This document shows positions 36,679 through 64,000 of a stretch of 64,000 nucleotides of DNA, piece after piece. This stretch comes from Hysterangium stoloniferum (taxonomy: Eukaryota > Basidiomycota > Agaricomycetes > Hysterangiales > Hysterangiaceae), in NCBI GenBank assembly GCA_015178975.1, contig WHVD01000090.1, forward strand, positions 124,001 to 188,000. The letters are read 5' to 3'. The number at the start of each line of letters is the position of its first letter. Positions within the stretch are counted from its first letter, which is position 1. The notes below the pieces were generated by a model. It was not told the origin of the DNA. It did not search any database and worked only from the letters and a program-made list of their open reading frames with translations. A program made the position numbers and the translations under genes.

Positions 36679-38195
36679 AGAAGCCTGGTGTATTAGTTAC
36701 CAGGAATAACTTCAGTCCTTACAGGACATGGGGGTGTATGAATTAGTACCAAGTTCTGAAGTCCCCACTGGTACTAAAATCCATAAAGGAAAACCAGTAT
36801 TCCGTGTCAAATGGGATGCCATGGGGGAGGTGATCCGTCGAAAAACCAGGCTTGTTTTCAAGGGTTTTGAACAAGTCTATGGGCGTGATTATGATAAAAC
36901 TACCTCACCTACTGCTCGAATGGAATCCTGGTGCCTTCTTCTACACATAGCAGCCCACTTTGGATGGGATGCACAGCAAATTGATGTTAAAACTGCCTTC
37001 TTGTATGGTCTGCTCCCAGATGATGAGGTCCAGTATATGTTCCAACCAGAAGGTTTTGAGGAGCCAGGAAAAGAGTCATGGATATGGAAAATTGTCCATG
37101 GTTTGTATGGCATGAAGCAGGCAGGTCGTATCTGGAATCGTACAATGCATGAAAAAATGTTGAGCTGGGGATTTACTCAGCTCTCCAGTGAATCTTGCAT
37201 ATACTACCGTCATACACCACTAGGAACTGTCATTACTGCAGTCCATGTTGATGATTTTCTATCCATTGCATCTTCCAAAGCTGAAAATGACAGGTTTAAA
37301 CAGCAAATGAAAGAGGTCTGGACCATTTCTGATCTTGGGACAGTCTGCTTTGTTGTTGGCATAGCAGTTGAATGGGACCGGCTGAATCATACTGTTAAAT
37401 TGTCCCAGACTGCTCTCATTGATCATCTTGTTTCTCAATTTGGCCAAACTGATGCCACTCCACTTTCTATCCCTATGGTTCCTGGCCTCAAACTAAGGCA
37501 TGTCATTAGGTCTTCCCTTCCTGCAGATGACCAGGACAACCTTTCCAGGCTTCCATACCGCTCCCTTGTTGGCTCCCTCCTATACCTTGCCATCTCAACT
37601 TGCCCTGATATCTCCTATACTGTCCAATAATTATCACAGTTCCTTGATTGTTATTCCTATGAACACTGGAATGCTGCCATCCGTGTTGTCCGGTATCTTA
37701 AGGGGACTTGTGCCCTGAAACTTCACCTTGGGGGCTCTGATGATTTAAAACTGGTGGGCTACAGTGACTTTGATTGGGCTAACTGTCTCGACACACGTAG
37801 AAGTGTGGGGGGGTTTGCATTCTCTCTTGGCTCTGGTGTCATATCCTGGAATGCTCGCAAACAAAAGACTGTTGCTGCCTCATCTTGTGAAGCTGAATAT
37901 ATTGCTGCCTTTTCTGCAGCCAAAGAAAATTCCTGGCTATGATCTGTCTTCCAGGGCATCAACCTACCTTTCAAGAATCCAACAACAATTCATTGTGACA
38001 ACAATGCTGCCATTTCTCTCTCAGAGGATCCACTACTACACGATCAAGTCAAGCACATTGATATCAAATACCATTTTATACGAGAACGCTCAGAGTCTAA
38101 GGTACTAAAGATAATCTAGCAGACATATTCACTAAAGCATTGGAAAGCCCACAATTTATATGTCTCTGAGGCTTCTTAGGTTTAAAATATGTGCA
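36679..38195 (+). pseudogene. Copia-3 pol, part 2 (RT and RNase H)
   Basis: RT resumes with MGVYELVPSSEVPTG, KTRLVFKGFEQVYG, QIDVKTAFLYG and the active-site AVHVDDFLSIASS. RNase H follows with VRYLKGTCALKL, GYSDFDWANCLDTRRS, CEAEYIAA and DNNAAISLSEDP. Stops are a TAA after SYQE (36700), a TAA after ISYTVQ (37628) and a TGA after NSWL (37940). Each stands where CAA or CGA would keep the frame. A frameshift near 38100 precedes a degraded C-terminus just before the 3' LTR. Confidence 0.88.
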
Positions 38196-38227
38196 AATGA
38201 CAGGAGGAGTACTGCGGTGAGGAGGAG

Positions 38228-40944: not shown

Positions 40945-41334
40945 CAGGGGCCAACAATAGAGATTGTACTAGTCAGGAGGCCTAACTCTATAACTATAGT
41001 GGAGCTTGGCTTCAACTGATGTGTTGTGCCCTCACATGAACTGTCAGGGTGCTCTGGTATTTCAGAACAGAGCAGATAGTATGATATGAGTAGAGGGTCA
41101 CAGCTTGCCAAAGACCACTCTCCAAGAATATAGCAATGAGAGGGGAAGGCAAAAAACTAAGAGGGGCTAATCTAAGTCAATATTCAAACTGAAGAACTGT
41201 AGTGTACATGGAAAGAGCTTTATACTACATTGAGATGGGTGATCAGAAGGCCAATCAGAGAAGTGAAGTGTAGGATGATGATGAGGTGGGGAGCAGTAGA
41301 AACTAATGTATGGTACTAAGAAACAATATTAGGG
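40945..41334. other. Debris left of the truncated HEAT array
   Basis: It contains another gypsy-LTR-like word (GGAGCTTGGCTTCAAC, about 41004) but no gene. The HEAT homology begins abruptly at 41335, exactly at an exon start. Confidence 0.45.
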
Positions 41335-42652
41335 CTGAATTTCGAGCCGCCATTACGCCTGCCATTCGCGACATTATTGCACTGTTGAAGGACTCCGACC
41401 ATTCCGTTCAATCAAGCGCAGTGTCGGCCCTAGCGAAGTTTTCAGAACAAGGTGCGGTGTATGATAATGGGATGGGAATCCACCTGATATTTGACCACAG
41501 CCGAATTTCGACCTGCCGTTGCGGGTGCCATTCCCGACATTGTTGCACTGTTGAAGGACTCTGACTATTTCATTCGATCGAGCACAGTATCGGCCCTGGC
41601 GAAGATTTCAGAGCAAGGTGCGGTGGGTGATAATGGATCAGAATCCAGCTGACATTTTACCACAGCCGAATTTCGAGCCGCCATTGCCCCTGCCATTCCC
41701 GACATTGTTGCACTGTTAAAGGACTCTGACGAGGTCGTTCGATCCCGTGGAGTATCGGAACTGGCGAAATTCTCAGAGCAAGGTGCGGTGGGTGATAATG
41801 GGATCAGAATCTTGCTGACATCTTACCAAAGCCGAATTTCGAGCCGCCATTGCTTCCGCCATTCCCGACATTATTGCACTGTTAAAGGACCCTGACGAGG
41901 ACGTTCGATCAAGTGCAGTATCGGAACTGGCGAAATTTTCAGAGCAAGGTGCGGTAGGTGATAATGGGATCGGAATCCGGCTGACATTGGACCACAGCGG
42001 AATTTCGACCCGCCATTGCGCGTCTCATTCCCGACATTGTTGCCCTGTTGGAAGACGCATATTTTGAAACTCGAACAAATGTTCTGGACCTGCTCGTTCA
42101 GCTAGCAGCCCATGGTGTGTGCATTGACACACAAGTCAACATCTCCTCAATGTTTTCAAAGATTCCTTTCGCGAAGCTATTATTGGTTGTAAATTAGAAC
42201 GTCACTGTATATCCCTTGTCAATAACGACGACGACGAAGTCGTTTCAAATGCTGGAAAATTGTTTGTAGCTTTTGCTCAATATGGTAAGCGTTAATTCTT
42301 TCCACCAGTGACTCCTTTTACCGTCTTTCAGGTTACTTTACAGACATCAAGCTGCACATAGTCATCTCTGCATTGTGCCACTTATATTTACCTGAACCAC
42401 CTCTGCAACATCGTGGCACGCTGATTGAAATCCTCTTGAAATCTAGTAAGTGTTTACCTCATCGAGTTGTGAAGAATACCGATCTTGGTAGCTTGTACAA
42501 GCCATGCCATTCTTGAAGTTGCTCATATTATATCCTTCATTATACATTTCATGGAGGATATTTCTGCTGAGCGCATTCGGGCTTTCATCGTGCAAATGGA
42601 TAGACACGGACTATTAACAACATTGTTGTCTCACATAGTTTGTGAGTGGTAG
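41335..42652 (+). pseudogene. HEAT-repeat array copy A (5'-truncated) with C-terminal exons
   Basis: Five 117-nt exons (41335-41451, 41501-41617, 41666-41782, 41832-41948, 41998-42114) each encode one 39-residue HEAT unit of the EFRAAI..AIPDI.ALLKDSD type. They are separated by 48-49-nt introns. Three C-terminal exons follow (42162-42284, 42332-42445, 42492-42652) with GT-AG introns of 46-47 nt, ending at TAG 42650-42652. No N-terminal exons or promoter precede it; gypsy debris abuts the first exon. The last exon reads nine codons past the stop of copy B. Confidence 0.85.
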
Positions 42653-43256
42653 AATGGTGACAACTCCAGTCCACCGTTGTATGGTTTACGCCAGATCCAC
42701 ATGTAATTGCTACATTGACCCATTTGTTGTTCCCTCATATATTCCTTGCGTCCCTTCGGAGTTTTTGGAAATATCACGAATATCCAATGCACAGACCTAC
42801 GATCTGACAGTCACCGCAAAACCTATGCCTGTGACCAAATATAACTTTTAATATGAATGAAAAGCGAAGGAACTACGACAGGTGCCTTACCTCAGTCGAT
42901 ACGAACACTGGAATCGACTGAGGTATTGAGTATTTAGGAAATCGGCAACAATGGATACTATGTCGACAAAAGCAATGTTGGGAACAAAGAAAAGGAATTA
43001 ATGCCTAAGACATGATCGAAAGTACATGTCATTCTAAAATCACACGTAACTTGCCACCGAGACGATCCGATCGTGTTGTTGTCACGCGTAAGCCCTAATG
43101 CTCGCGGTGGGTTTAGGTTTTCAACCAGAGGAAACGAACTGTATATCTCACTAAAAAGTGTTATACGTACTCAAATCCCTAGCAGGAAATGCGAGCTTCG
43201 AATTCAGAGCCTGTTGGCTGTTCATGGCTAATCGGACGAGATCTGTGATTCGGCAC
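42653..43256. other. Flank shared with copy B; hairpin
   Basis: No gene. A perfect inverted repeat TACCTCAGTCGAT / ATCGACTGAGGTA (42888-42900 and 42913-42925) is conserved at 63278-63315 in copy B. Confidence 0.6.
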
Positions 43257-50224: not shown

Positions 50225-51380
50225 CCAGATCTTGGTGCAGTGGAATGAGCAGTGTTGACAAAGGGAGGAAGTGGAAAAGCAAGCCAAGGAGGCTGAGGAG
50301 AACTTGGACAGGGAGTCCCAGGCGGCACTGGTCATGGAAAAAGAGGCTGAGGAGGAAAGGAAAAGAGATGAGGAGGAAAGGAAAAGAGATGAGGAGGAAA
50401 GGAAAAGAGATGAGGAGGAAAGGAAAAGAGATGAGGAGGAGGAAAGAGAAAAGAGATGAGGAGGAAAGGAAAAGAGATGAGGAGGAAAGGAAAAGAGATG
50501 AGGAGGAAAGGAAAAGAGATGAGGAGGAAAGGAAAAGAGATGAGGAGGAAAGGAAAAGAGATGAAGAGAGGAGGAAAGGAAAAGAGATGAGGAGGAAAGG
50601 AAAAGAGATGAGGAGGAAAGGAAAAGAGATGAGGAGGAAAGGAAAAGAGATGAGGAGGAGGTGGCGTGGGTTGCTGTGGAGCATGCCAAGGCAGCTGCAG
50701 AGAAGGCCACAGTTGCCGTGGGAAAGGTAAGTCTCAGTGATCCACAAAGTTGAATCTACTGACTCTGCCTTTTTAGTGCAAAGTGGTAGAGGTTGAGTCA
50801 GAATCTGAGGGGGAGCTGGAGAGCCCCCAAAAGGTAAGTCTTGGGTCCATGGGGTATTCTGGGGACTAACCATGTCAACAGAAGGCAAGAAAAATAGTCC
50901 CTGTCTGCTTGGAAGTGAAGAATGACCTGCGGTGTTCCAGTTGCAATGACTGGAACACTGACTGCCATCGGAAGTCCAGGTGGGGACCAGGCTGTTGGCA
51001 ATGTGCACACCTCAAAGTAAGGTGCTCACTTGCTCATGAGCCCATAGGGTCCATGGCATGGGAAGTGGGTGGACTAGTGGAGAGGCCTGGGGCCTTGGAG
51101 GAGGTCTTGGTGCAGATAGCTGTGGGCATAGAGGCCCAGAATGAGTTGCTTGAGAAGAGCAACCAGTGCAGCAGGTCATGGCGAAAAAAATCTCCTGGGA
51201 CTCCACATGGAGTTCTTGCCCTTTTTGGCAAAGTATGGCAGTTATGTCTATGTTGAGCTGCAGGACAGGAGTTCCGAGGAGCCTGGTGAGGATGAGGACA
51301 GGGTTCCCAAGGAGGTGGAAGAACTCCTAAAAGAGCCTAAAGAAGTTCAGCAGAAACATAGCCCCATAAATGTAGATTGA
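50225..51380 (+). CDS. Coiled-coil plus Cys-cluster protein, frame-damaged
   Basis: Exon 1 (to about 50728) encodes WNEQ, a stop, then REEVEKQAKEAEENLD and a charged coiled coil built of the heptad EEERKRD. Introns at about 50729-50776 (GTAAGTCTC to TTTTTAG) and 50835-50880 (GTAAGTCTT to CAACAG) lead to an exon with a Cys pattern CSSCNDWNTDC, then CWQCAHLKVRC. A further segment is YVYVELQDRSSEEPGEDEDR. I recall similar proteins near retroelements in mushrooms, but this is unverified. The repeat tract changes frame within itself and the exon near 51180 has an indel, so a working protein is doubtful. Confidence 0.5.
50349..50662 (+). repeat. 21-bp tandem repeat (heptad EEERKRD)
   Basis: About 14 copies of GAGGAGGAAAGGAAAAGAGAT. 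Two irregular units (near 50437 and 50562) change the reading frame. Confidence 0.92.
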
Positions 51381-51559: not shown

Positions 51560-52570
51560 GGTCAGAGAGAGGATAGTGGTCCAGGTTTGAGTGGGTAAGC
51601 TGTCTGAAAGTCAGTAACAATCTCCATGGCATTACTGAGTTCTATGGCCAAATCCATGGAGTCTCTTCATCAGTGCCCTCATAACCTGCCCACTTGACCA
51701 AGTAAAGCAGTTTACAAGTGCATCGACACTTATCTATTTTTAAATCTAAAATTTGTGAGATTTCAAACTCAGGTTCTCCATCAATAATGACTGGAGGGGG
51801 TGGAGATTGCATGCAATCTGGGATAGTGTTAGCAGTACAAGGTTCTAACATAGAAACATGAAATACCAGGTGTACTGTGTGCATGCTATCCGGAAGCCGT
51901 AGAGTCCATGAAACTGAACCTACTTGTGCTATTATTTCAAATGGACCTAAATATTTTTCAGTGAGTTTCTTTGATGGATGGGTAGTCCAGAAGAATTGAG
52001 CTTTGACAAAAACACAATCACCAATTTTGAAGTTGGGTGGTGGAATCCAGTTCTTGTCCACTGAACACTGATATTGCTCTTGGGCGGACATAATTGCAGC
52101 CCAGAGTTCCTTGTGGAGCTCGTGGAGGTCTGTGATGAACTCTTGAGCACAGGCAGAGACAAGATTCCATTCCGGGTATACTGTAATATTTGGATTGTAT
52201 CCTTTATTTGCAAAGAACGGAGAAACACCAGTAGTGGCTGAAGGTGCATTGTTGTAAGCAAATTCTGCAAGTGGTAACAAGGATTTCCAATTGTCCTGTT
52301 GATAGTTGGAATATACATGGAGGTATTGTTCCAATGTCTGATTGACACATTCAGTTTGTCCGTTGCCTTCTGGGTGATATCTGGATGTGAAGTGTAATTT
52401 CATGTCCAAGGATTTCCCAAGGGATCTAAAGAAGTGAGATACAAACTCTGATGGGGCAGAACTCTGTGCTTGGAAAATATATTGATAATGAAAGGTTCTG
52501 CTAACTGCATGGATGTGATGGTATCATGCATAGGGATGAATATACCTTGTTTTGAGAATCTGTCAACAAC
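51560..52570 (-). pseudogene. Ty3/gypsy integrase C-terminus with chromodomain
   Basis: From 52570 the reverse strand reads the integrase core: FSKQGIFIPMHDTIT, then after a frameshift EFVSHFFRSLGKSLDMKLHF, YHPEGNGQTECVNQTLEQYL, AYNNAPSATTGVSPFFANKG and the GPFEIIAQVG barrel segment. A chromodomain-like end follows (EFEISQILD, LLYLVKWAGYEGTDEETPW). A frameshift separates it from a final ELSNAMEIVTDFQTAYPLK. Chromodomain integrases (chromoviruses) target insertion to heterochromatin. RT and upstream parts are missing. Confidence 0.88.
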
Positions 52571-55606: not shown

Positions 55607-57291
55607 ATGTCTGCGCAGTATTCACAAGACCTTACCTCCGCCGAATCACAGATACCGTTCGTCTCAGGTATTAAATCAGAGTTTACACTTATTCTAAACT
55701 GAGGCACACAAAAGAGGCAGAAGGAACAACCAACCGTCAATCATCGCCCACTTATATTCCATCAAGCCCAGAATCCAGTGCCGATAATAGCTTAGAAAGC
55801 GAGGACGAAAACCCGTATAGCAAGTATGTTGAATCCGATTCAACCATATGGTCATTATACCTGAAGGAAACGGGAGAAGAGGACAAAGAGCTTGTCACCT
55901 CATTGCAAGTCGGTGTCGACGAGCTTCTCATATTTGTATATTCAATACGTTTTCCTTTATGGATATTTAATTAATTCACAGTTTTTCAGGCCGGTTTGTT
56001 TGGAGGGATTCTTACCGCGTTCCTGATCGAAAGTAGGAAGGATTTGCAGGTAGATCCTCTTCGGGAAATCCTTCAGGCGCTTCAAAATCCCCTCGTTGTA
56101 ACTACCTCTCAGCCTTTTCAAGTCTCCAAATCATCCCTTGTTGTCAACTATTTGTGGTTCACTAGTCTCGGTCTGACTCTCTTCAGCGCGCTTTGTGCTG
56201 TACTTGCAAAAGAATGGCTGGCGAAGTATATTCCTGTATCCCCCGGAAGTCGCTCAAGTGATGCACGCCAACGTCACCTTCGTGCTAGGAGAGCACGGCA
56301 ATGGCGTCTCGAGTCAGTTGTTACTGGAATCCCGCTTTTGATTCAACTGGCTCTCTTTCTTTTCTGTGCAGGTCTCGTCTTATTCACATGGAATAACAGC
56401 GTAGCTTTGGGTGTTCTTATGCTTATTTTGACCATATTGGCAATCGTGTTATATATACTTGGCACCGTTTTTCCCTTATTTTCCCCCGCTTGTCCCTTTC
56501 AGACAACAATGTCAAGGTTTTTCCCAGTTGTCTCTGCAAGCGCAAAGCATGAAACATCTACATCAGGCTACTGTGGTTTTTTTTTACCAACAAGGACGTA
56601 TACATTCAGTATTTCTGAATGGCTACACCGCCTTTCTCGGTTCTTGGTCGAAATGCATCGCAAACCTCAACGGGCCGAACTTGAAGCTGATATCCTGGCA
56701 TGGGTAATTGAAAAATCCACATCGAAGGAGGGGATTCACGAGGCACTTAGGGCGGTAGCAGGTGCTAAACAATCTGAACAGTTGCGGATTGCCTTGTGCC
56801 AACGGGCTGTCACGGAGAAATTGTGCAAAACTTTGGAGAACTGCTTTGACACCGCGGGCGTCGTCACTGTCCGTGATGCAGCACTTGCGGAAGTTTCTCT
56901 CCTTGCAATGTCACGATTCCTATCGCCGCCAACAGACAAACTCAAGGACAAAGAGTACCTTACGCCCTTCAAAACACTCCTAGATAATGGGAGACCATTA
57001 CATCGGTTGGACAATTTAGATCCTTGTGTAAAGACGTTGGGGTGGGCGGTTCATATTGGGATTTGGGTAAATATGGATGTCGACAACCCAGAGGTGCCAA
57101 CAGGCCCACACATTGAAACGGTGGCCAATATGGGTGCAGCACCATACGAACGAAGGACATTGATGATGGCGGTTATGGATGGAGCATTGTCAGAAAAGAA
57201 GGGCTTACGTACAACATGCGAAGGGTTAATGGTGGCATATTCGCATCTTAGTAGGGACTTTTTCCATGGCTTCGGGAAAGAAACTGATTGA
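55607..57291 (+). CDS. DUF6535-domain membrane protein (N-terminal part of the HEAT gene)
   Basis: The ATG at 55607 gives MSAQYSQDLTSAES. Intron 1 is 55668-55714 (47 nt) and intron 2 is 55936-55989 (54 nt); both keep frame. Exon 2 encodes an acidic tail and WSLYLKETGEEDKEL. Exon 3 opens with AGLFGGILTAFLIES, the DUF6535 signature and first membrane helix. Further helices follow at YLWFTSLGLTLFSALCAV, IQLALFLFCAGLVLF and VLMLILTILAIVLYILG. The later part is soluble and helical. The frame ends at TGA 57289-57291, directly followed by TAA. Reading past both, the same frame continues sensibly to the splice site at 57341, so the gene was probably once joined to the HEAT exons. Function unknown; I infer a membrane anchor for the HEAT array. 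Confidence 0.82.
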
Positions 57292-60017
57292 TAAGCAGCG
57301 GATTGCCGGAGAATGCTCAAAGAAAAAGGTTTCATACCTGGTAAACTATGGAGTTGTCATAAGTTAAAACACACCTACCTAATGTATTATCATAACAGGG
57401 AAACAAAGAGAGTGGATGAAGAAAGTGATTGAAAAAGCAGATGATCCTGATGAGCGATTACTTTTGGAATGTGGTGAGAAGATGCCAAGTGGAAAAGGGA
57501 TGCGATATAATATTCACCGATGTTCAGCTAGATTCCCAACTGGCATCGTTGGTGCTATTCCCAACATTGCTGCACTGTTGAAGGACTCTGACAACTTCAT
57601 TGGATCAAGTGGAGTATCGGTCCTGGCGAAGTTTTCAGAGCAGGGTACGGTGTGATAATGAGATCGGAATCCACCTGACATTTGACCACAGCCGAATTTC
57701 GAGCCGCCATTGCGCCTACCATTCCCGACATTATTGCACTGTTGAAGAAGTCCGACCATTCCGTTCGATCAAGCACAGTATCGGCCCTGGCGAAGTTTTC
57801 AGAGCAAGGTGTGGTGTATGATAATGGGATGAGAATCTAGCTGATATTTTCCCGCAGCCGAATTTCGAGCGGACATGGCGCTTGCCATTTCCGACATTGT
57901 TGCACTCTTGAAAGACTCCGACGGTTCCTTTCGACCAAGGACCATGTTTGAACGGTGGAAGGAACACAGCAAACATTATTTTAGATCAAGAACAGTATCG
58001 GCCCTGGCAAAGTTTTCAGAGCAAGGTGCGGTGTGTGATAATGGGATGGGAATCCGGCTGACATTTGACCACAGTCGAATTTCGAGCCGCCATTGCGCCT
58101 GCCATTCCCCACGTTATTGCACTCTTGAAGGACTCCGACGATTCCATTCGATCAAGCACAGTATCGGCCCTGGCAAAGTTTTCAGAACAAGGTGCGGTGT
58201 ATGATAATGGGATGGGAATCCAGCTGATGTTTGACCACAGCCGAGTTTGGAGCGGCCATTGCGGATGTCATCCCTGATATTGTTGCACTGTTGAAGGACT
58301 CTAGCTATTATGTTCTATTACGTGCAGTATCGGCTCTGGCGAAAGTTTCAGAGCAAGGTGCGTTGTGTGATGATGGGATGGGAATCCAGCTGACATTTGA
58401 CCACAGCCGAACTTCGAGCCGCCATTGCGGGTGTTATTTCCGATATTGTTGCACTGTTGAAGGACTCTGATTATTCCGTTCGATCAAAGACTGTTTTGGC
58501 CATGGCGATGGTTTTAGAGCAAGGTGCGGTGTGTTATAATGGGATGGGAATCCAGTTGACATTTGACCACAGCTGAATTTCGAGCGGCCATTGCCCCTGC
58601 GATTCCCGATATTGTTGCACTGTTGAAGGATTCTCACACGCCTTTTAGTTCAGGGGCAGTATCAGCCCTGATGGAGGTTTCAGAGCAAAGTACGGTGTGA
58701 GATAGTGAGATGGGAATCGGGCTGACATTTGAACACAGCCGAATTTCGAGCCGCCATTGCCCCTACCATTCCCGATATTATTGCACTGTTGAAGGATTCT
58801 GAGAAATTCGTTAGATCAGGGGCAGTATCAGTCCTGGGGAAGTTTTCAGAGCAAGGTGTGGTGTATGATAATGGGATGGGGATCCAGCTGACATTTGTCC
58901 ATAGCCGAATTTCGACCCACCATTGCACATGCCATTCCTCGCATTGTTGCACTGTTAAAAGATTCTGACGAGTTCGTTCGATCAAGCACAGTATCGGCCC
59001 TGGCCATTGTTTCAAAGGAAGGTGCAGTGTGTTGGAATGGGATGTGAATCCAGCTGACATTTGACCACAGCCGAATTTCGAGCCGCCATTACCCCTGCTA
59101 TTCCCGATATTGTTGCACTGTTGAAGGATTCTCACACGCCTTTTAGATCAGTGGTAGTATCAGCCCTGATGGAGGTTTCAGAGCAAAGTACGGTGTGAGA
59201 TAGTGAGATGGGAATCGGGCTGACATTTGAACACAGCCGAATTTCGAGCCGCCATTGCCCCTGCCATTCCCGATATTGTTGCACTGTTGAAGGATTCTGA
59301 CAAATTCGTTAGATCAGTGGCATTATCGGCCCTGGTGAAGTTTTCAAAGCAAGGTGTGGTGTATGATAATGGGATGGAAATCCAGCTGACATTTGACCAC
59401 AGCCGAATTTCGACCCACCATTGCGGATGCCATTCCTGGCATTGTTGCACTGTTAAAAGATTCTGACGAGTTCTTTATATCAGAGGCAGTATCGGCCCTG
59501 GCGAAGTTTTCAAAGCAAGGTGTGGTGTATGATAATGGGATGGGAATCCAGCTGACATTTGACCACAGCCGAATTTCGACCCACCATTGCGGATGCCATT
59601 CCTGGCATTGTTGCACTGTTAAAAGATTCTGGCGAGTTATTTAGATCAGAGGCAGTATCGGCCCTGGCGAAATTTTCAGAGCAAGGTGTCATGTGTGATA
59701 ACAGGATGAGAATCCAGCTAACATTTGACCACAGAAAAATTTCGAGCCGCCATTGCCCCTGCCATTCCCGATATTGTTTCACTGTTGGAGGATTCTGACG
59801 AGGTCGTTAGATCACAGGCAGTATGGGCCCTGGGGAAGTTTTCAGAGCAAGGTGCGGTGTATGATTATGGGATGGGAATCCAGCTGACATTTGATCACAG
59901 CCGAATTTCGACCCACCATTGCGGATGCCATTCCTGGCATTGTTGCACTGTTAAAAGATTCTAACGAGGTCGTTAGATCAAGCACCGGATCGGCCCTGGC
60001 AGAGGTTTCAAAACAAG

Positions 60018-60557
60018 GTGATCCAATAAATCTTGTTGAAAAATTTGTCTCAAGTCTCCATAGGGGAGTTTCTCCCTCTCGTTAGGGTTAGAATACGCGC
60101 GGCTATAGGTTTCTCTGACCAAACGCGACCACCCCTGCGTGAGTCATCTTGAAACCCACTTCGAAGGCTGCACATCCCCTCTTTTTCCCCATCTCATTCT
60201 GATCCATATCGCGGTAATCTAGGAAATACGCAAAATATACCACACTTCTCTGGATTGTCAACCCGTCCTCTGTCGTCAACTGTAGATCTCTTCCATAGTA
60301 CCGATAATATTTCGCGTCGTGAAGACATCAAGATCATTCAATGCCTAACAATGACATGTACGTGAAGAGAGGTCATATATTGTTCATTCGCTGATTTCTT
60401 CACCACTTTCAAGCTCGGAATTTTGACCTTCCCTTATCCAGGTTAGACCTCACAGTGCAAAAAGGAAAGTTAGCTCTAGGAAAGCTGGTTACTGCTCTAC
60501 ATATGTTTAGTCCGTGCAACAATTCCTTATAAATTGCCGTGATTCATGGACTTGCAG
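60018..60557. other. 540-bp interruption of the HEAT array
   Basis: After unit 15 the usual intron is replaced. The frame would read GDPINLVEKFVSSLHRG and stop at 60083-60085. The array resumes at 60558 after TTCATGGACTTGCAG. It may be an old insertion, a long intron (GTGATCC to TTGCAG), or a gene end and a new gene start. No transposon signature was found. Confidence 0.5.
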
Positions 60558-60674
60558 ACGAATTTGAATCCGCCATTACCCGTGCTATTCCGGACATTCT
60601 TGAACTGTTGAAGGACTCTGACAATTCTGTTCGATCAAGCACAGTATCGGCCTTGGCCAAGGTTTCAGAGCAAG

Positions 60675-60723
60675 GTGTCATGTGTGATAACAGGATGAGA
60701 ATCCAGCTAACATTTGACCACAA
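60675..60723 (+). other. Ex-intron retained in frame (lost splice acceptor)
   Basis: Here the intron end reads GACCACAAATTTCGAG instead of GACCACAGCCGAATTTC, a 4-bp loss removing the AG. The unit becomes 162 bp, a multiple of three, so the former intron reads through as GVMCDNRMRIQLTFDHK into the next HEAT unit. Confidence 0.75.
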
Positions 60724-61879
60724 ATTTCGAGCCGCCATTGCGCCTGCCATTCCCGACATTATTGCATTGTTGAAGGTCTCCGACCTTTCCGTTCAATCAG
60801 AGACACTATCGGCCCTGGCGAAGTTTTCGGAGCAAGGTGCGGTGTATGATAATGGGATGGGAATCCAGCTGACATTTGACCACAGCCGAATTTCGACCCA
60901 CCATTGCGGATGCCATTCCTGGCATTGTTGCACTGTTAAAACATTCTGACGATTCCATTCGATCAACGGGAGCGTCGGCCCTGGCGATGCTTTCAGACCA
61001 AGGTGCGGTATGTGATAATGAGGTGGGAATCTAGCTGACATTTGACCACAGCCGAATTTCGAGCCACCATTGCGCCTGCCATTCCCGACATTATTGCACT
61101 GTTGAAGGATTCTGACTGGTTCGTTAGATTAAGCGCAATATCGGCCCTGGGGAAGGTTTCAGAGCAAAGTGCGGTGCGTGATAATGGGATGGGAATCCAG
61201 CTGACATTTGACGACAGCTGAATTTCGAGCGGCCATTGCGCCTTCCATTCCCGACATTATTGCACTGTTGAAGGAGTCTGGCTATTTTGTTGGATCAGAG
61301 GTAGTATCGGCCCTGGCGAAGTTTTCAGAGCAAGGCGCGGTGTATAATAATGGGATGGGAATCCAGCTGATATTTGACCACAGCCGAATTTCGACCCACC
61401 ATTGCGGATGCCATTCCTGGCATTGTTGCACTGTTAAAAGATTCTGACGGTTCCATTCGATCAACGGGAGCATCGGCCCTGGCGATGATTTCAGACCAAG
61501 GTGCGGTGTGTGATAATGGGAAGGGAATCTAGCTGACATTTGACCACAGCTGAATTTCGAGCCGCCACTACGCCTGCCATTCGCGACATTATTGCACTGT
61601 TGAAGGACTCCGACTATTCCGTTCAATCAAGGGCAGTATCGGCCCTGGTGAAGTTTTCAGAGCCAGGCGCGGTGTATGATAATGGGATGGGAATCCAGCT
61701 GACATTTGACCACAGCCGAATTTCGACCCACCATTGCGGATGCCATTCCTGGCATTGTTGCACTGTTAAAACATTCTGACGGTTTCATTCGATCAACGGG
61801 AGCATCGGCCCTGGTGATGTTTTCGGACCAAGGTGCGGTGTGATAATGGGAAGGGAATCTAGCTAACATTTGACCACAG

Positions 61880-64000
61880 CTGAATTTCGAGCCGCCATTA
61901 CGCCTGCCATTCGCGACATTATTGCACTGTTGAAGGACTCCGACCATTCCGTTCAATCAAGCGCAGTGTCGGCCCTGGCGAAGTTTTCAGAACAAGGTGC
62001 GGTGTATGATAATGGGATGGGAATCCACCTGATATTTGACCACAGCTGAATTTCGACCTGCCGTTGCGGGTGTCGTTCCCGACATTGTTGCGCTGTTGAA
62101 GGACTCTTCCCATCTCACTCGATCAATCACAGTATCGGCCCTGGCGAAGTTTTCAGAGCAAGGTGCGGTGGGGGATAATGGGATCAGAATCGAGCTGACA
62201 TTTTACCACAGCCGAATTTCGAGCCGCCATTGCCCCTGCCATTCCCGACATTGTTGCACTGTTAAAGGACCCTGACGAGGTCGTTCGATCAAGTGCAGTA
62301 TCGGAACTGGCGAAGGTTTCAGAGCAAGGTGCGGTGTGTGATAATGGGATCGGAATCCGGCTGACATTGGACCGCAGCGGAATTTCGACCCGCCATTGCC
62401 CGTCTCATTCCCGACATTGTTGCCCTGTTGGAAGACGCATATTTTAAAACTCGAACATATGTTCTGGACCTGCTCGTTCAGCTAGCAGCCCATGGTGTGT
62501 GCATTGACACGCAAGTCAACATCTCCTCAATGTTTTCAAAGATTCCCTTCGCGAAGCTATTATTGGTTGTAAATTAGAACGTCACTGTATATCCCTTGTG
62601 AATAACGACGACGACGAAGTCGTTTCAAATGTTGGAAAATTGTTTGTAGCTTTTGCTCAATATGGTAAGCTTTAATTCTTTCCACCTGTGACTCCTTTTA
62701 CCGTCTTGCAGGTTACTTTACCGACATTAAGCTGCACATAGTCATTTCTGCATTGTGTCACCTATATTTACCTGAGCCACCTCTGCAACATCGTGGTACG
62801 CTGATTGAAATCCTCTTGAAATCTAGTAAGTGTTTACCTCATCGAGTTGTGATGAATACCGATCTTGGTAGCTTGTACAAGCCATGCCATTCTTGAAGTT
62901 GCTCATATTATATCCTTCATTATACATTTCATGGAGGATATTTCTGCTGAGCGCATTCGGGCTTTCATCGTGCAAATGGATAGACACGGACTATTAACAA
63001 CATTGTAGTCTCACATAGTTTGTGAGTGGTAGAATGGTGACAACTCCAGTCCACCGTTATATATGGTTTACGCCCGATCCACATGTATTCGCTACATTGT
63101 CCCATTTGTTCCCTCATATATTTCTCGTGTCCCTTCCGAGTTTTTGGAAATATCACGAATATCCAATGCACAGACCTACGTTTACTGTTGATCTGACAGT
63201 CACCGCAAAACCTATGCCTGTGACCAAATATAACTTTTAATATGAATGAATAGCGAAGGAACTACGACAGGGTGACTTACCTCAGTCGATACGAACACTG
63301 GAATCGACTGAGGTATTGAGTATTTAGGAAATTGGGAACAATGGGTACTACGACGACGAAAGCAATGTTAGGAACAAAGAAGAGGAATTAATGCCTAAGA
63401 CATGATCGAAAGTACATGTCATTCTAAAATCACACGTGGTTTTCCACCAGAGGAAACGAGCTGTATATCTAACTACACAGTGTTATACGTACTCAAATCC
63501 CTAGCAGGAAATGCGAGCTTCGAATTCAGAGCCTGTTGACTGTTCATGGCTATCGGACGACTCGGCACATGCTGTGTATCACTCTGGGCGTTGGTTATCA
63601 CATGGAAATGTACAATTAGGTCGACGCCTACCTGTAGCTAGCTATTTTACCCTGGCTAATTATCATACCGCTGTACACCGAATATCGTCGATTAGGGATA
63701 TCCTGAGGAAGAAAGGGGAGTCATGCCTTGGTTTTTGGCATGTTCAGATGCCGCAGACAGGTTGGCCTTAATCGACATCACTCGATCAATACCAGACAGG
63801 ACAATGTAATATCTTTAAGCGGCGGAACGGATGACTACAGTACGATAGATGCACTGCTACGATGGTCGAATAGCTACCCGAGAGATCAATAAACTTAGGT
63901 GGATACATTAGTGAGCAACTGTGCCATCAAGGGTCGGAGGAGCCAATTACGGGAAAGAGTGATCAAGGAGTGACGTCAATATGGTAAGCTGGCCAGGGAA
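61880..64000 (+). repeat. Segmental duplication, copy B (partner 41335-44574)
   Basis: It contains the last four HEAT units, C-terminal exons, hairpin and 3' flank. The similarity reaches the window edge, so the true right end is unknown. Confidence 0.88.
63009..64000. other. 3' flank of the HEAT gene
   Basis: No gene. It holds the hairpin TACCTCAGTCGAT/ATCGACTGAGGTA (63278-63315) and the empty sites GGCAC (63564-63568) and GCTGT (63670-63674) corresponding to the two solo LTRs in copy A. Confidence 0.6.

What the first reader, a model, noticed from the sequence alone, without database searches (positions are those of the whole stretch)
57645..62377. A protein-repeat array grown by copying an exon-plus-intron cassette
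Nearly every 39-residue HEAT repeat is exactly one 117-nt phase-1 exon followed by a near-identical 49-nt intron (166-bp period). Because 49 is not a multiple of three, splicing of every unit is required. At least 23 such introns in about 5 kb look as conserved as the exons, implying recent unequal exchange or gene conversion. Coupled to a DUF6535 membrane part, this is a plausible variable recognition receptor. By analogy, fungal NLR repeat domains also undergo concerted evolution. That role is inference.
Basis: partly seen in the sequence, partly recalled or inferred. Interest (0 to 1): 0.92.

Follow-up and report, generated by a model that had tools for sequence, protein, structure and literature searches.

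The report
HEAT-repeat gene built from exon-intron cassettes
A truffle-like fungus carries a large family of membrane-anchored proteins whose binding arm grows and reshuffles by copying a repeat together with its own small intron, a gene layout known from spider silk but here in what looks like a recognition protein.

Summary
The window's gene (DUF6535 membrane part plus 26 HEAT units) spliced by hand gives 1,759 residues before its stop. Twenty-three exons are exactly 117 nt, phase 1. There are 24 short array introns, 22 of 49 nt and 2 of 47 nt. It belongs to a large family in Hysterangium stoloniferum.

Splicing is strongly supported without RNA. Over 527 units in 25 arrays, exon lengths are multiples of three in 512; the 15 exceptions lie in four decayed arrays. 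Elsewhere 105 of 473 introns changed length out of frame.

Introns diverge slightly less than silent exon sites. Array-private intron bases, block duplications and near-identical patches between genes show cassette-level exchange.

Two corrections. This array is mostly old: its introns are about 86% alike, hardly more than between genes, with recent patches only. One unit lost its 3' splice site and can read through in frame, so not every unit needs splicing.

Variation tends to fall on residues equivalent to the randomised surface of alphaRep binders, with dN/dS above 1 in this subfamily only. A recognition role is plausible but unproven. No NLR domain was found. Homogenised repeat introns are known in spidroins, so: new variant of a known kind.

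The parts
55608..55716 (+). Probable 5' end: ATG at 55608 and a first intron before 55717 (not verified)
   Evidence: Read by eye and the frames; left out of the gene model.
55717..55935 (+). Coding exon, start of DUF6535
   Evidence: gene model; Pfam PF20153 residues 45-208, E 4e-47 in the spliced protein.
55990..57250 (+). Main DUF6535 exon: hydrophobic helices, then a helical region
   Evidence: Hydropathy peaks at residues 59-88 (two overlapping), 128-146, 187-205 and 211-229; exon dN/dS .48 among 6 intact close copies, 15 pairs.
57299..57340 (+). Linker exon
   Evidence: phase 1 both sides.
57399..57644 (+). Linker plus first HEAT repeat
   Evidence: followed by a 47-nt intron.
57645..60017 (+). 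Repeat block A: 14 HEAT exons (13 of 117 nt, one of 168 nt) and 14 short phase-1 introns
57858..58025 (+). HEAT exon with a 51-nt in-frame insert
   Evidence: unit 217 bp here; units of 211 or 214 bp in other arrays imply inserts of 45 or 48 nt.
58472..59291 (+). Patch near-identical to a paralog on another contig (L017, C212)
   Evidence: 5 differences in 820 nt, denser outside; a window this clean in 0 of 20,000 even shuffles (ends chosen after seeing the data).
59230..61072 (+). Patch near-identical to an inverted paralog about 100 kb away on the same contig (L015)
   Evidence: 5 differences in 1,843 nt, 0 of 20,000 even shuffles; the long intron inside differs by .002 against .038-.058 for most other close paralogs.076 for L021.
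60018..60557 (+). Long mid-array intron (540 nt), a landmark of the family
   Evidence: 22 copies of 519-543 nt in 21 of the 22 arrays (the truncated copy left out), none in L018; also in L039 and L040. No Rfam match.
60558..60836 (+). Fused exon of two HEAT units with a 45-nt exonised intron remnant (60675-60719)
   Evidence: Unit 162 bp, 3' AG lost, in frame; same in L015 and L017.
60837..62377 (+). Repeat block B: 9 HEAT exons of 117 nt and 10 short introns, two of them GC-AG
62378..62494 (+). Terminal HEAT-like exon
   Evidence: 117 nt but diverged.
62495..63008 (+). C-terminal introns and exons to the stop codon (TAG 63006-63008)
   Evidence: no Pfam family over its cut-off.
41334..43164 (+). 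Truncated 3' copy: 4 full units plus terminal exon and C-terminus
   Evidence: A public gene model (P0103, BU17DRAFT_68699) shares an exact 77-residue peptide with it across the 49-nt intron 41949-41997; the main gene lacks that peptide.

Best explanation
This is one member of a large DUF6535-HEAT gene family of Hysterangium stoloniferum. Each HEAT repeat is a 117-nt exon followed by a phase-1 intron of about 49 nt. Because both ends of the cassette have the same phase, any whole-cassette gain, loss or swap keeps the frame. Unequal exchange and gene conversion, inside and between arrays, therefore change unit number and reshuffle units without breaking the protein, and carry introns along with exons (shown by sequence comparison). 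Splicing of the short introns is inferred from constraint patterns and gene models, not from RNA. The product is most likely a membrane-anchored protein with a long cytosolic HEAT solenoid whose concave face varies, working as a variable binding arm, possibly for nonself recognition (inferred; about 45% likely). Gene anatomy and cassette exchange: about 95% likely.
For: Spliced, the model gives 1,759 residues before the stop, and HEAT_2 scores 238 bits. Exon length is a multiple of three in 473 of 473 units outside four decayed arrays, while 105 of those 473 introns have frame-changing lengths; 251 broken exons were expected if indels fell evenly per base. The decayed arrays show the contrast: 15 of 54 exons out of frame. 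The least diverse columns of 359 introns are G1, A36 (branch site of CTGAC), A48, G49, T7 and T34. Intron divergence is .65-.75 of dS in pairs chosen by total distance. Exchange. Units are more alike within arrays than between (0 of 500 label shuffles, exon and intron). A Mycena albidolilacea homologue with the same 39-residue period has its own repeat consensus (aa distance within it .295, within the window array .327, between .532). Variable sites.
Against: No transcript data. Public gene models of the species are fragmentary; a crude motif count in 12 of them finds 37 spliced and 6 retained junctions. dN/dS above 1 holds in one subfamily only. Residues 9 and 34, outside the alphaRep set, are also variable, and 27 and 31, inside it, are not, in the pooled units. 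The window array is hardly homogenised as a whole. Six of 17 paralogs tested have a broken main DUF6535 exon (L012, L013, L014, L015, L020, L021), although their 122 array exons stay in frame, so the whole protein is not always kept. Two of 467 exons of 117 nt hold a stop (L013, L026). Six of 473 units lack AG at my boundary; three are the in-frame 162-bp type, three (L013, L026, L030) are not in frame. Pairs chosen by exon similarity (up to .05) put introns above dS.045 against .028, a choice that lowers exon values. The 5' site GTGCGG is not a strong fungal consensus (recalled).
Confidence: 0.72

Rival explanations
1. Same gene anatomy, but the HEAT arm is an ordinary scaffold. Homogenisation is a neutral by-product of tandem repeats, and the variable sites are only relaxed surface positions.
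For: Pre-chosen alphaRep-equivalent sites in the second subfamily give dN/dS 1.04 (.82-1.28), and 1.15 (.98-1.34) over all. Arrays stay in frame in genes with a broken DUF6535 exon.
Against: dN/dS 1.41-1.64 in the window's subfamily at sites chosen from other data, and 1.47 (1.18-1.86) at the alphaRep-equivalent sites. The spacing pattern ranks 1 or 2 of 27 registers in all four sets.
Confidence: 0.35
2. Introns are selected in themselves: they space and extend homology so that exchange happens in register, and so drive homogenisation.
For: The short intron is kept at 24 of 26 unit boundaries here. Its consensus is the same in the 10 close arrays printed and differs by one base in five of six second-subfamily arrays and two in the sixth, while the single-copy long intron differs by about .20. 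The same idea was proposed for Argiope silk genes (PMC9779670, passages).
Against: Consensus stability also follows from a star-like history. In the oldest array (L040) introns diverge as fast as third positions.260 and .268. Breakpoints were not shown to lie in introns.
Confidence: 0.15
3. Introner-like elements inserted separately into every repeat.
For: Similar short introns in very many copies: a 32-nt core occurs 158 times exactly, 0 in the control.
Against: Same site and phase in every unit. Six of six isolated-looking core matches examined lie beside HEAT unit sequence (L033 only a fragment). Intron and exon distances are correlated.
Confidence: 0.02
4. A decayed satellite-like array whose apparent introns are not spliced.
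For: No RNA evidence; four other arrays (L022-L025) are clearly decayed.
Against: Frame kept in exons only; splice signals and branch A are among the least diverse intron columns; an intact long open frame only when spliced.
Confidence: 0.03
5. The near-identical patches between arrays are assembly errors, not gene conversion.
For: Repeats are hard to assemble; no reads could be checked here.
Against: The two array patches contain scattered differences, and a third patch lies in non-repeat 3' sequence (62.3-63.1 kb at 99-100%, then about 97%).
Confidence: 0.07

Closest known systems
Repetitive homogenised introns of spider silk genes (Argiope MaSp2; flagelliform spidroin)
   Same: Regular small introns delimit repeat units; introns are homogenised with exons, more alike within than between genes; intergenic conversion (PMC9779670, passages read).
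   Different: Structural silk, not a folded solenoid; introns there average 97.6% alike within a gene, here from 74% (L040) to 97% (L026); here variable surface sites are superimposed on the units.
Podospora NWD/HNWD allorecognition genes (HET-D, HET-E, WD40 repeats) and fungal NLR repeats with high internal conservation
   Same: Repeats exchanged within and between family members, repeat number polymorphism, a few hypervariable codons, intact repeats even in pseudogenes (PMC1805685, PMC4986451, PMC12222747, passages).
   Different: No NACHT or NB-ARC found here; DUF6535 membrane part instead. The word intron occurs 0, 0 and 1 times in PMC4986451, PMC12222747 and PMC1805685, so per-repeat introns are not the theme there. 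The window array averages 64% aa identity, below their 85% criterion.
alphaRep and designed armadillo repeat proteins
   Same: Among the best PDB sequence matches; natural variability is enriched at positions equivalent to alphaRep's randomised 18, 19, 22, 23, 26, 30.
   Different: Those are laboratory libraries; here units are 39 residues and natural, and two of the six positions (27, 31) vary little in the pooled units of this genome though they do in Mycena.
Teleost piccolo-b zinc-finger exon arrays
   Same: A symmetric exon amplified 8 to 16 times, probably by unequal crossover (PMC3484663, passages).
   Different: Large phase-0 exons, single-exon events, no near-identical short introns described in the passages seen.
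DUF6535-HEAT 'armadillo-type' proteins of Mycena and other Agaricomycetes
   Same: P0001 of Mycena albidolilacea: 39% identity over 90% of the protein, same 39-residue period.
   Different: Its exon layout could not be seen; its repeat consensus differs (AEFRESIRPSIPQIVEFLKDN).

Membership tests
HEAT-repeat proteins (Pfam HEAT_2, HEAT) | Tandem HEAT units above Pfam cut-off | tested here: met
   HEAT_2 238.1 bits (cut-off 27.7), HEAT 197.2 (23.5) on the spliced protein.
DUF6535 (PF20153) | Match above curated cut-off | tested here: met
   160.7 bits (cut-off 23.9), full length 1-177.
Fungal NLR / STAND receptors | NACHT or NB-ARC nucleotide-binding domain | tested here: not met
   None up to E 1 in the parts outside the repeats (HMMER filters drop most weak hits); none among the 25 of 30 families shown for the whole protein.
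Fungal recognition repeats with high internal conservation | Repeats at least 85% identical in protein | tested here: not met
   Window array mean 64%; highest of 20 arrays L026 83%, L031 80%.
Fungal recognition repeats with high internal conservation | Exchange between repeats and loci with repeat-number differences | tested here: met
   Among paralogs only. Among strains not testable.
Fungal recognition repeats with high internal conservation | Positive selection at a few surface codons | tested here: inconclusive
   Above 1 in the window's subfamily, not in the other; counting method, not codon models.
Genes with repetitive homogenised introns (spidroin type) | A short intron at the same place in nearly every repeat | tested here: met
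   24 of 26 unit boundaries here.
Genes with repetitive homogenised introns (spidroin type) | Introns more alike within a gene than between genes | tested here: met
   17 of 20 arrays, but marginal in the window array (.141 against .149).
Introner-like elements | Same intron in unrelated genes or sites | tested here: inconclusive
   Only 6 isolated-looking core matches were examined, all beside HEAT unit sequence; 100 of 158 core matches were listed.
Cell-surface or membrane receptor | Membrane topology, ligand, signalling | not testable with these tools
   Hydrophobic helices and charge pattern only.

The most novel reading that the evidence does not exclude
A basidiomycete recognition system without any NLR domain. 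Dozens of membrane-anchored HEAT arms are diversified like a natural alphaRep library: phase-symmetric exon-intron cassettes are the unit of recombination, introns act as frame-safe spacers that travel with the exons, and selection tunes the concave face.
Probability: 0.33. Interest if true: 0.82.

Novelty: new variant of a known kind. Interest (0 to 1): 0.62.

Why it matters
It joins two phenomena so far described apart in what I could read: homogenised per-repeat introns (silk genes) and shuffled, selected recognition repeats (fungal allorecognition). If confirmed, it offers a natural test of whether introns help or merely accompany repeat homogenisation, since arrays of different ages sit side by side in one genome. 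It would also point to a new class of variable proteins in mycorrhizal fungi. In practice, the public models of such genes that I saw are fragmentary, so comparative surveys may miss them.

Tried and rejected

Circularity to note: L022-L025 were set apart after I saw their frameshifts, so the full count is 15 of 527, and 0 of 473 is for the rest. Units outside 145-185 bp (long-intron, inserted and edge units) were not in that table. Variable residues 22, 23, 24, 28 were chosen from the same data; searches use sites chosen elsewhere. The alphaRep mapping (23, 24, 27, 28, 31, 35) rests on a recalled alphaRep consensus; the paper passages gave position numbers only. Patch ends for one search were chosen after seeing the differences.
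Full report
WHAT IS THERE. The array is real and regular. Reading the unit as a 117-nt exon plus a 49-nt intron, both phase 1, I built a gene model from 55717 to the stop at 63006-63008. It has 32 exons and gives 1,759 residues; the true first exon is not verified. The protein is DUF6535, then 26 HEAT units, a terminal HEAT-like exon and a C-terminal part without a known domain. Of 26 unit boundaries, 24 hold a short intron (22 of 49 nt, 2 of 47 nt), one holds a 540-nt intron, and one lost its 3' splice site.

THE ORGANISM AND FAMILY. Public proteins named Hysterangium stoloniferum lie on contigs whose lengths equal those of seven contigs of this assembly, including the window's own (349,138 bases). 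One unit alone gives 501 matches genome-wide, and DUF6535 gives 75; both are lower bounds. Units were measured in 25 arrays: 23 in the table, counting the window's truncated copy, plus L039 and L040. Many others were not fetched.

IS IT SPLICED? No RNA was available. Four results agree. First, of 527 units measured, 512 exons have lengths divisible by three. The 15 others are all in four decayed arrays (15 of 54 units there). In the other 473 units none is broken, although 105 of their introns have frame-changing lengths; evenly spread indels would have broken about 251 exons. Two of 467 exons of 117 nt hold a stop. Second, in 359 introns the least diverse columns are G1, A36, A48, G49, T7 and T34, that is the donor G, the branch site of CTGAC, the acceptor, and a T at +7. 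Third, HEAT_2 reaches 238 bits in the spliced protein, against 29 bits in one unspliced reading frame and nothing in another. Fourth, the public model of the truncated copy in this same window (P0103) shares an exact 77-residue peptide across the predicted intron 41949-41997. Across 12 public models of the species a crude motif count finds 37 spliced junctions and 6 retained ones, so annotation is poor. The unit at 60558 is a natural exception: a 4-base loss removed the acceptor, and the 45-nt remnant is in frame and stop-free. L015 and L017 share it. Three further units (L013, L026, L030) lack AG at my boundary and are not in frame; they may be misplaced boundaries or real defects.

HOW SIMILAR ARE INTRONS AND EXONS? 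Within arrays exons differ by .174 and introns by .106 on average; between arrays .206 and .129. In disjoint pairs chosen by total distance, intron divergence is .65 to .75 of dS. Pairs chosen by exon similarity up to .05 give the opposite.045 against .028, as that choice lowers the exon values. Arrays differ in age. L026, L027 and L031 are strongly homogenised (intron .034 to .063). L039 carries five private intron bases at 86-95% of its units, which shows that introns spread within an array. L040 is old (intron .260, third positions .268). The window array is in between and weakly homogenised (intron .141 within.149 to others). Introns are more alike within than between arrays in 17 of 20 arrays.

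HOW DOES IT CHANGE? Aligning units between paralogs shows that the window array shares its first six units, the long intron and its end broadly in order with its close relatives, but its middle is a mosaic. Units 7-10 match L017 units 22-25 at 98-100%, and units 11-19 match L015 units 8-16 at 99-100%. The exact patches are 58472-59291 (5 differences in 820) and 59230-61072 (5 in 1,843). Even shuffling of the differences never gave a window so clean in 20,000 trials. The 3' end, 62.3-63.1 kb, is again 99-100% to L015. L026 repeats three units exactly five units on, and L031 shows similar blocks; no such run at 95% was found in the window array. Exon-unit counts listed range from 19 to 39 outside the decayed arrays (11-17), some cut by region edges or truncated. 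L017 contains two long introns, as if a block including it had been duplicated. Within single arrays intron and exon similarity are only loosely tied (5 of 18 arrays at P<.05), so exchange also breaks up units.

WHAT MIGHT IT DO? In 418 pooled units residue diversity peaks at 23 and 24 of the 39, then 9, 28 and 34. Designed alphaRep binders vary positions 18, 19, 22, 23, 26 and 30 (PMC3754942, passages), which I equate with 23, 24, 27, 28, 31, 35 here. Diversity at those sites exceeds the rest in both subfamilies, in the Mycena homologue and in the window array (permutations 109, 173, 10 and 371 of 20,000; rank 1 or 2 of 27 registers). In this genome 23, 24, 28 and 35 carry the signal; 27 and 31 vary little in the pooled units, though they do in Mycena. 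dN/dS at the six sites is 1.47 (1.18-1.86) in the window's subfamily, 1.04 (.82-1.28) in the other and 1.15 (.98-1.34) over all, against .68 for the remaining residues over all. Sites chosen from the other subfamily or from Mycena give 1.41-1.64 in the first and 1.09-1.18 in the second, where the intervals include 1. The main DUF6535 exon has dN/dS .37-.50 among intact copies. Hydrophobic peaks and a positively charged loop between the second and third membrane helices (10 K/R, 3 D/E) suggest that both ends and the HEAT arm face the cytosol (inference). The picture is a membrane-anchored variable binding arm. The analogy with Podospora NWD genes is close in dynamics, down to intact repeats in genes whose other part is broken (here 6 of 17 paralogs; there PMC1805685). 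The family is nevertheless not NLR by the domain test made here.

KNOWN OR NEW? Homogenised per-repeat introns are known in flagelliform and Argiope silk genes (PMC9779670, passages). Shuffled recognition repeats are known in fungal NLRs. DUF6535 occurs in one paper of the library, in an expression table. I found no paper joining the two phenomena (searches; open-licence papers only, listings and passages). Hence a new variant of a known kind.

Noticed in passing
   Followed up: partly
60018-60557: The long mid-array intron has AATAAA within its first 16 bases in 21 of 22 copies, a possible poly(A)-like signal right after block A; an in-frame stop follows if it is retained (by eye). A short isoform with block A only is conceivable. 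L039 and L040 lack it.
   Followed up: partly
L012, L013, L014, L015, L020, L021: Main DUF6535 exon broken by stops or frameshifts while the array exons stay in frame, as reported for Podospora pseudogenes.
   Followed up: partly
L022, L023, L024: Three decayed copies with nearly the same layout (17 units each) near one contig end (C475) and on two small contigs (C414, C318); possibly haplotypes or recent duplicates.
   Followed up: no
61335 and 61667: Two array introns use GC instead of GT at the donor; 9 of 473 units do so overall.
   Followed up: partly
50339-50659: A 21-bp tandem repeat of 14.8 copies, open on both strands.
   Followed up: no
36700-38200 and 51642-52523: Fragments that read like copia-type and gypsy-type retroelement genes (by eye).
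   Followed up: no
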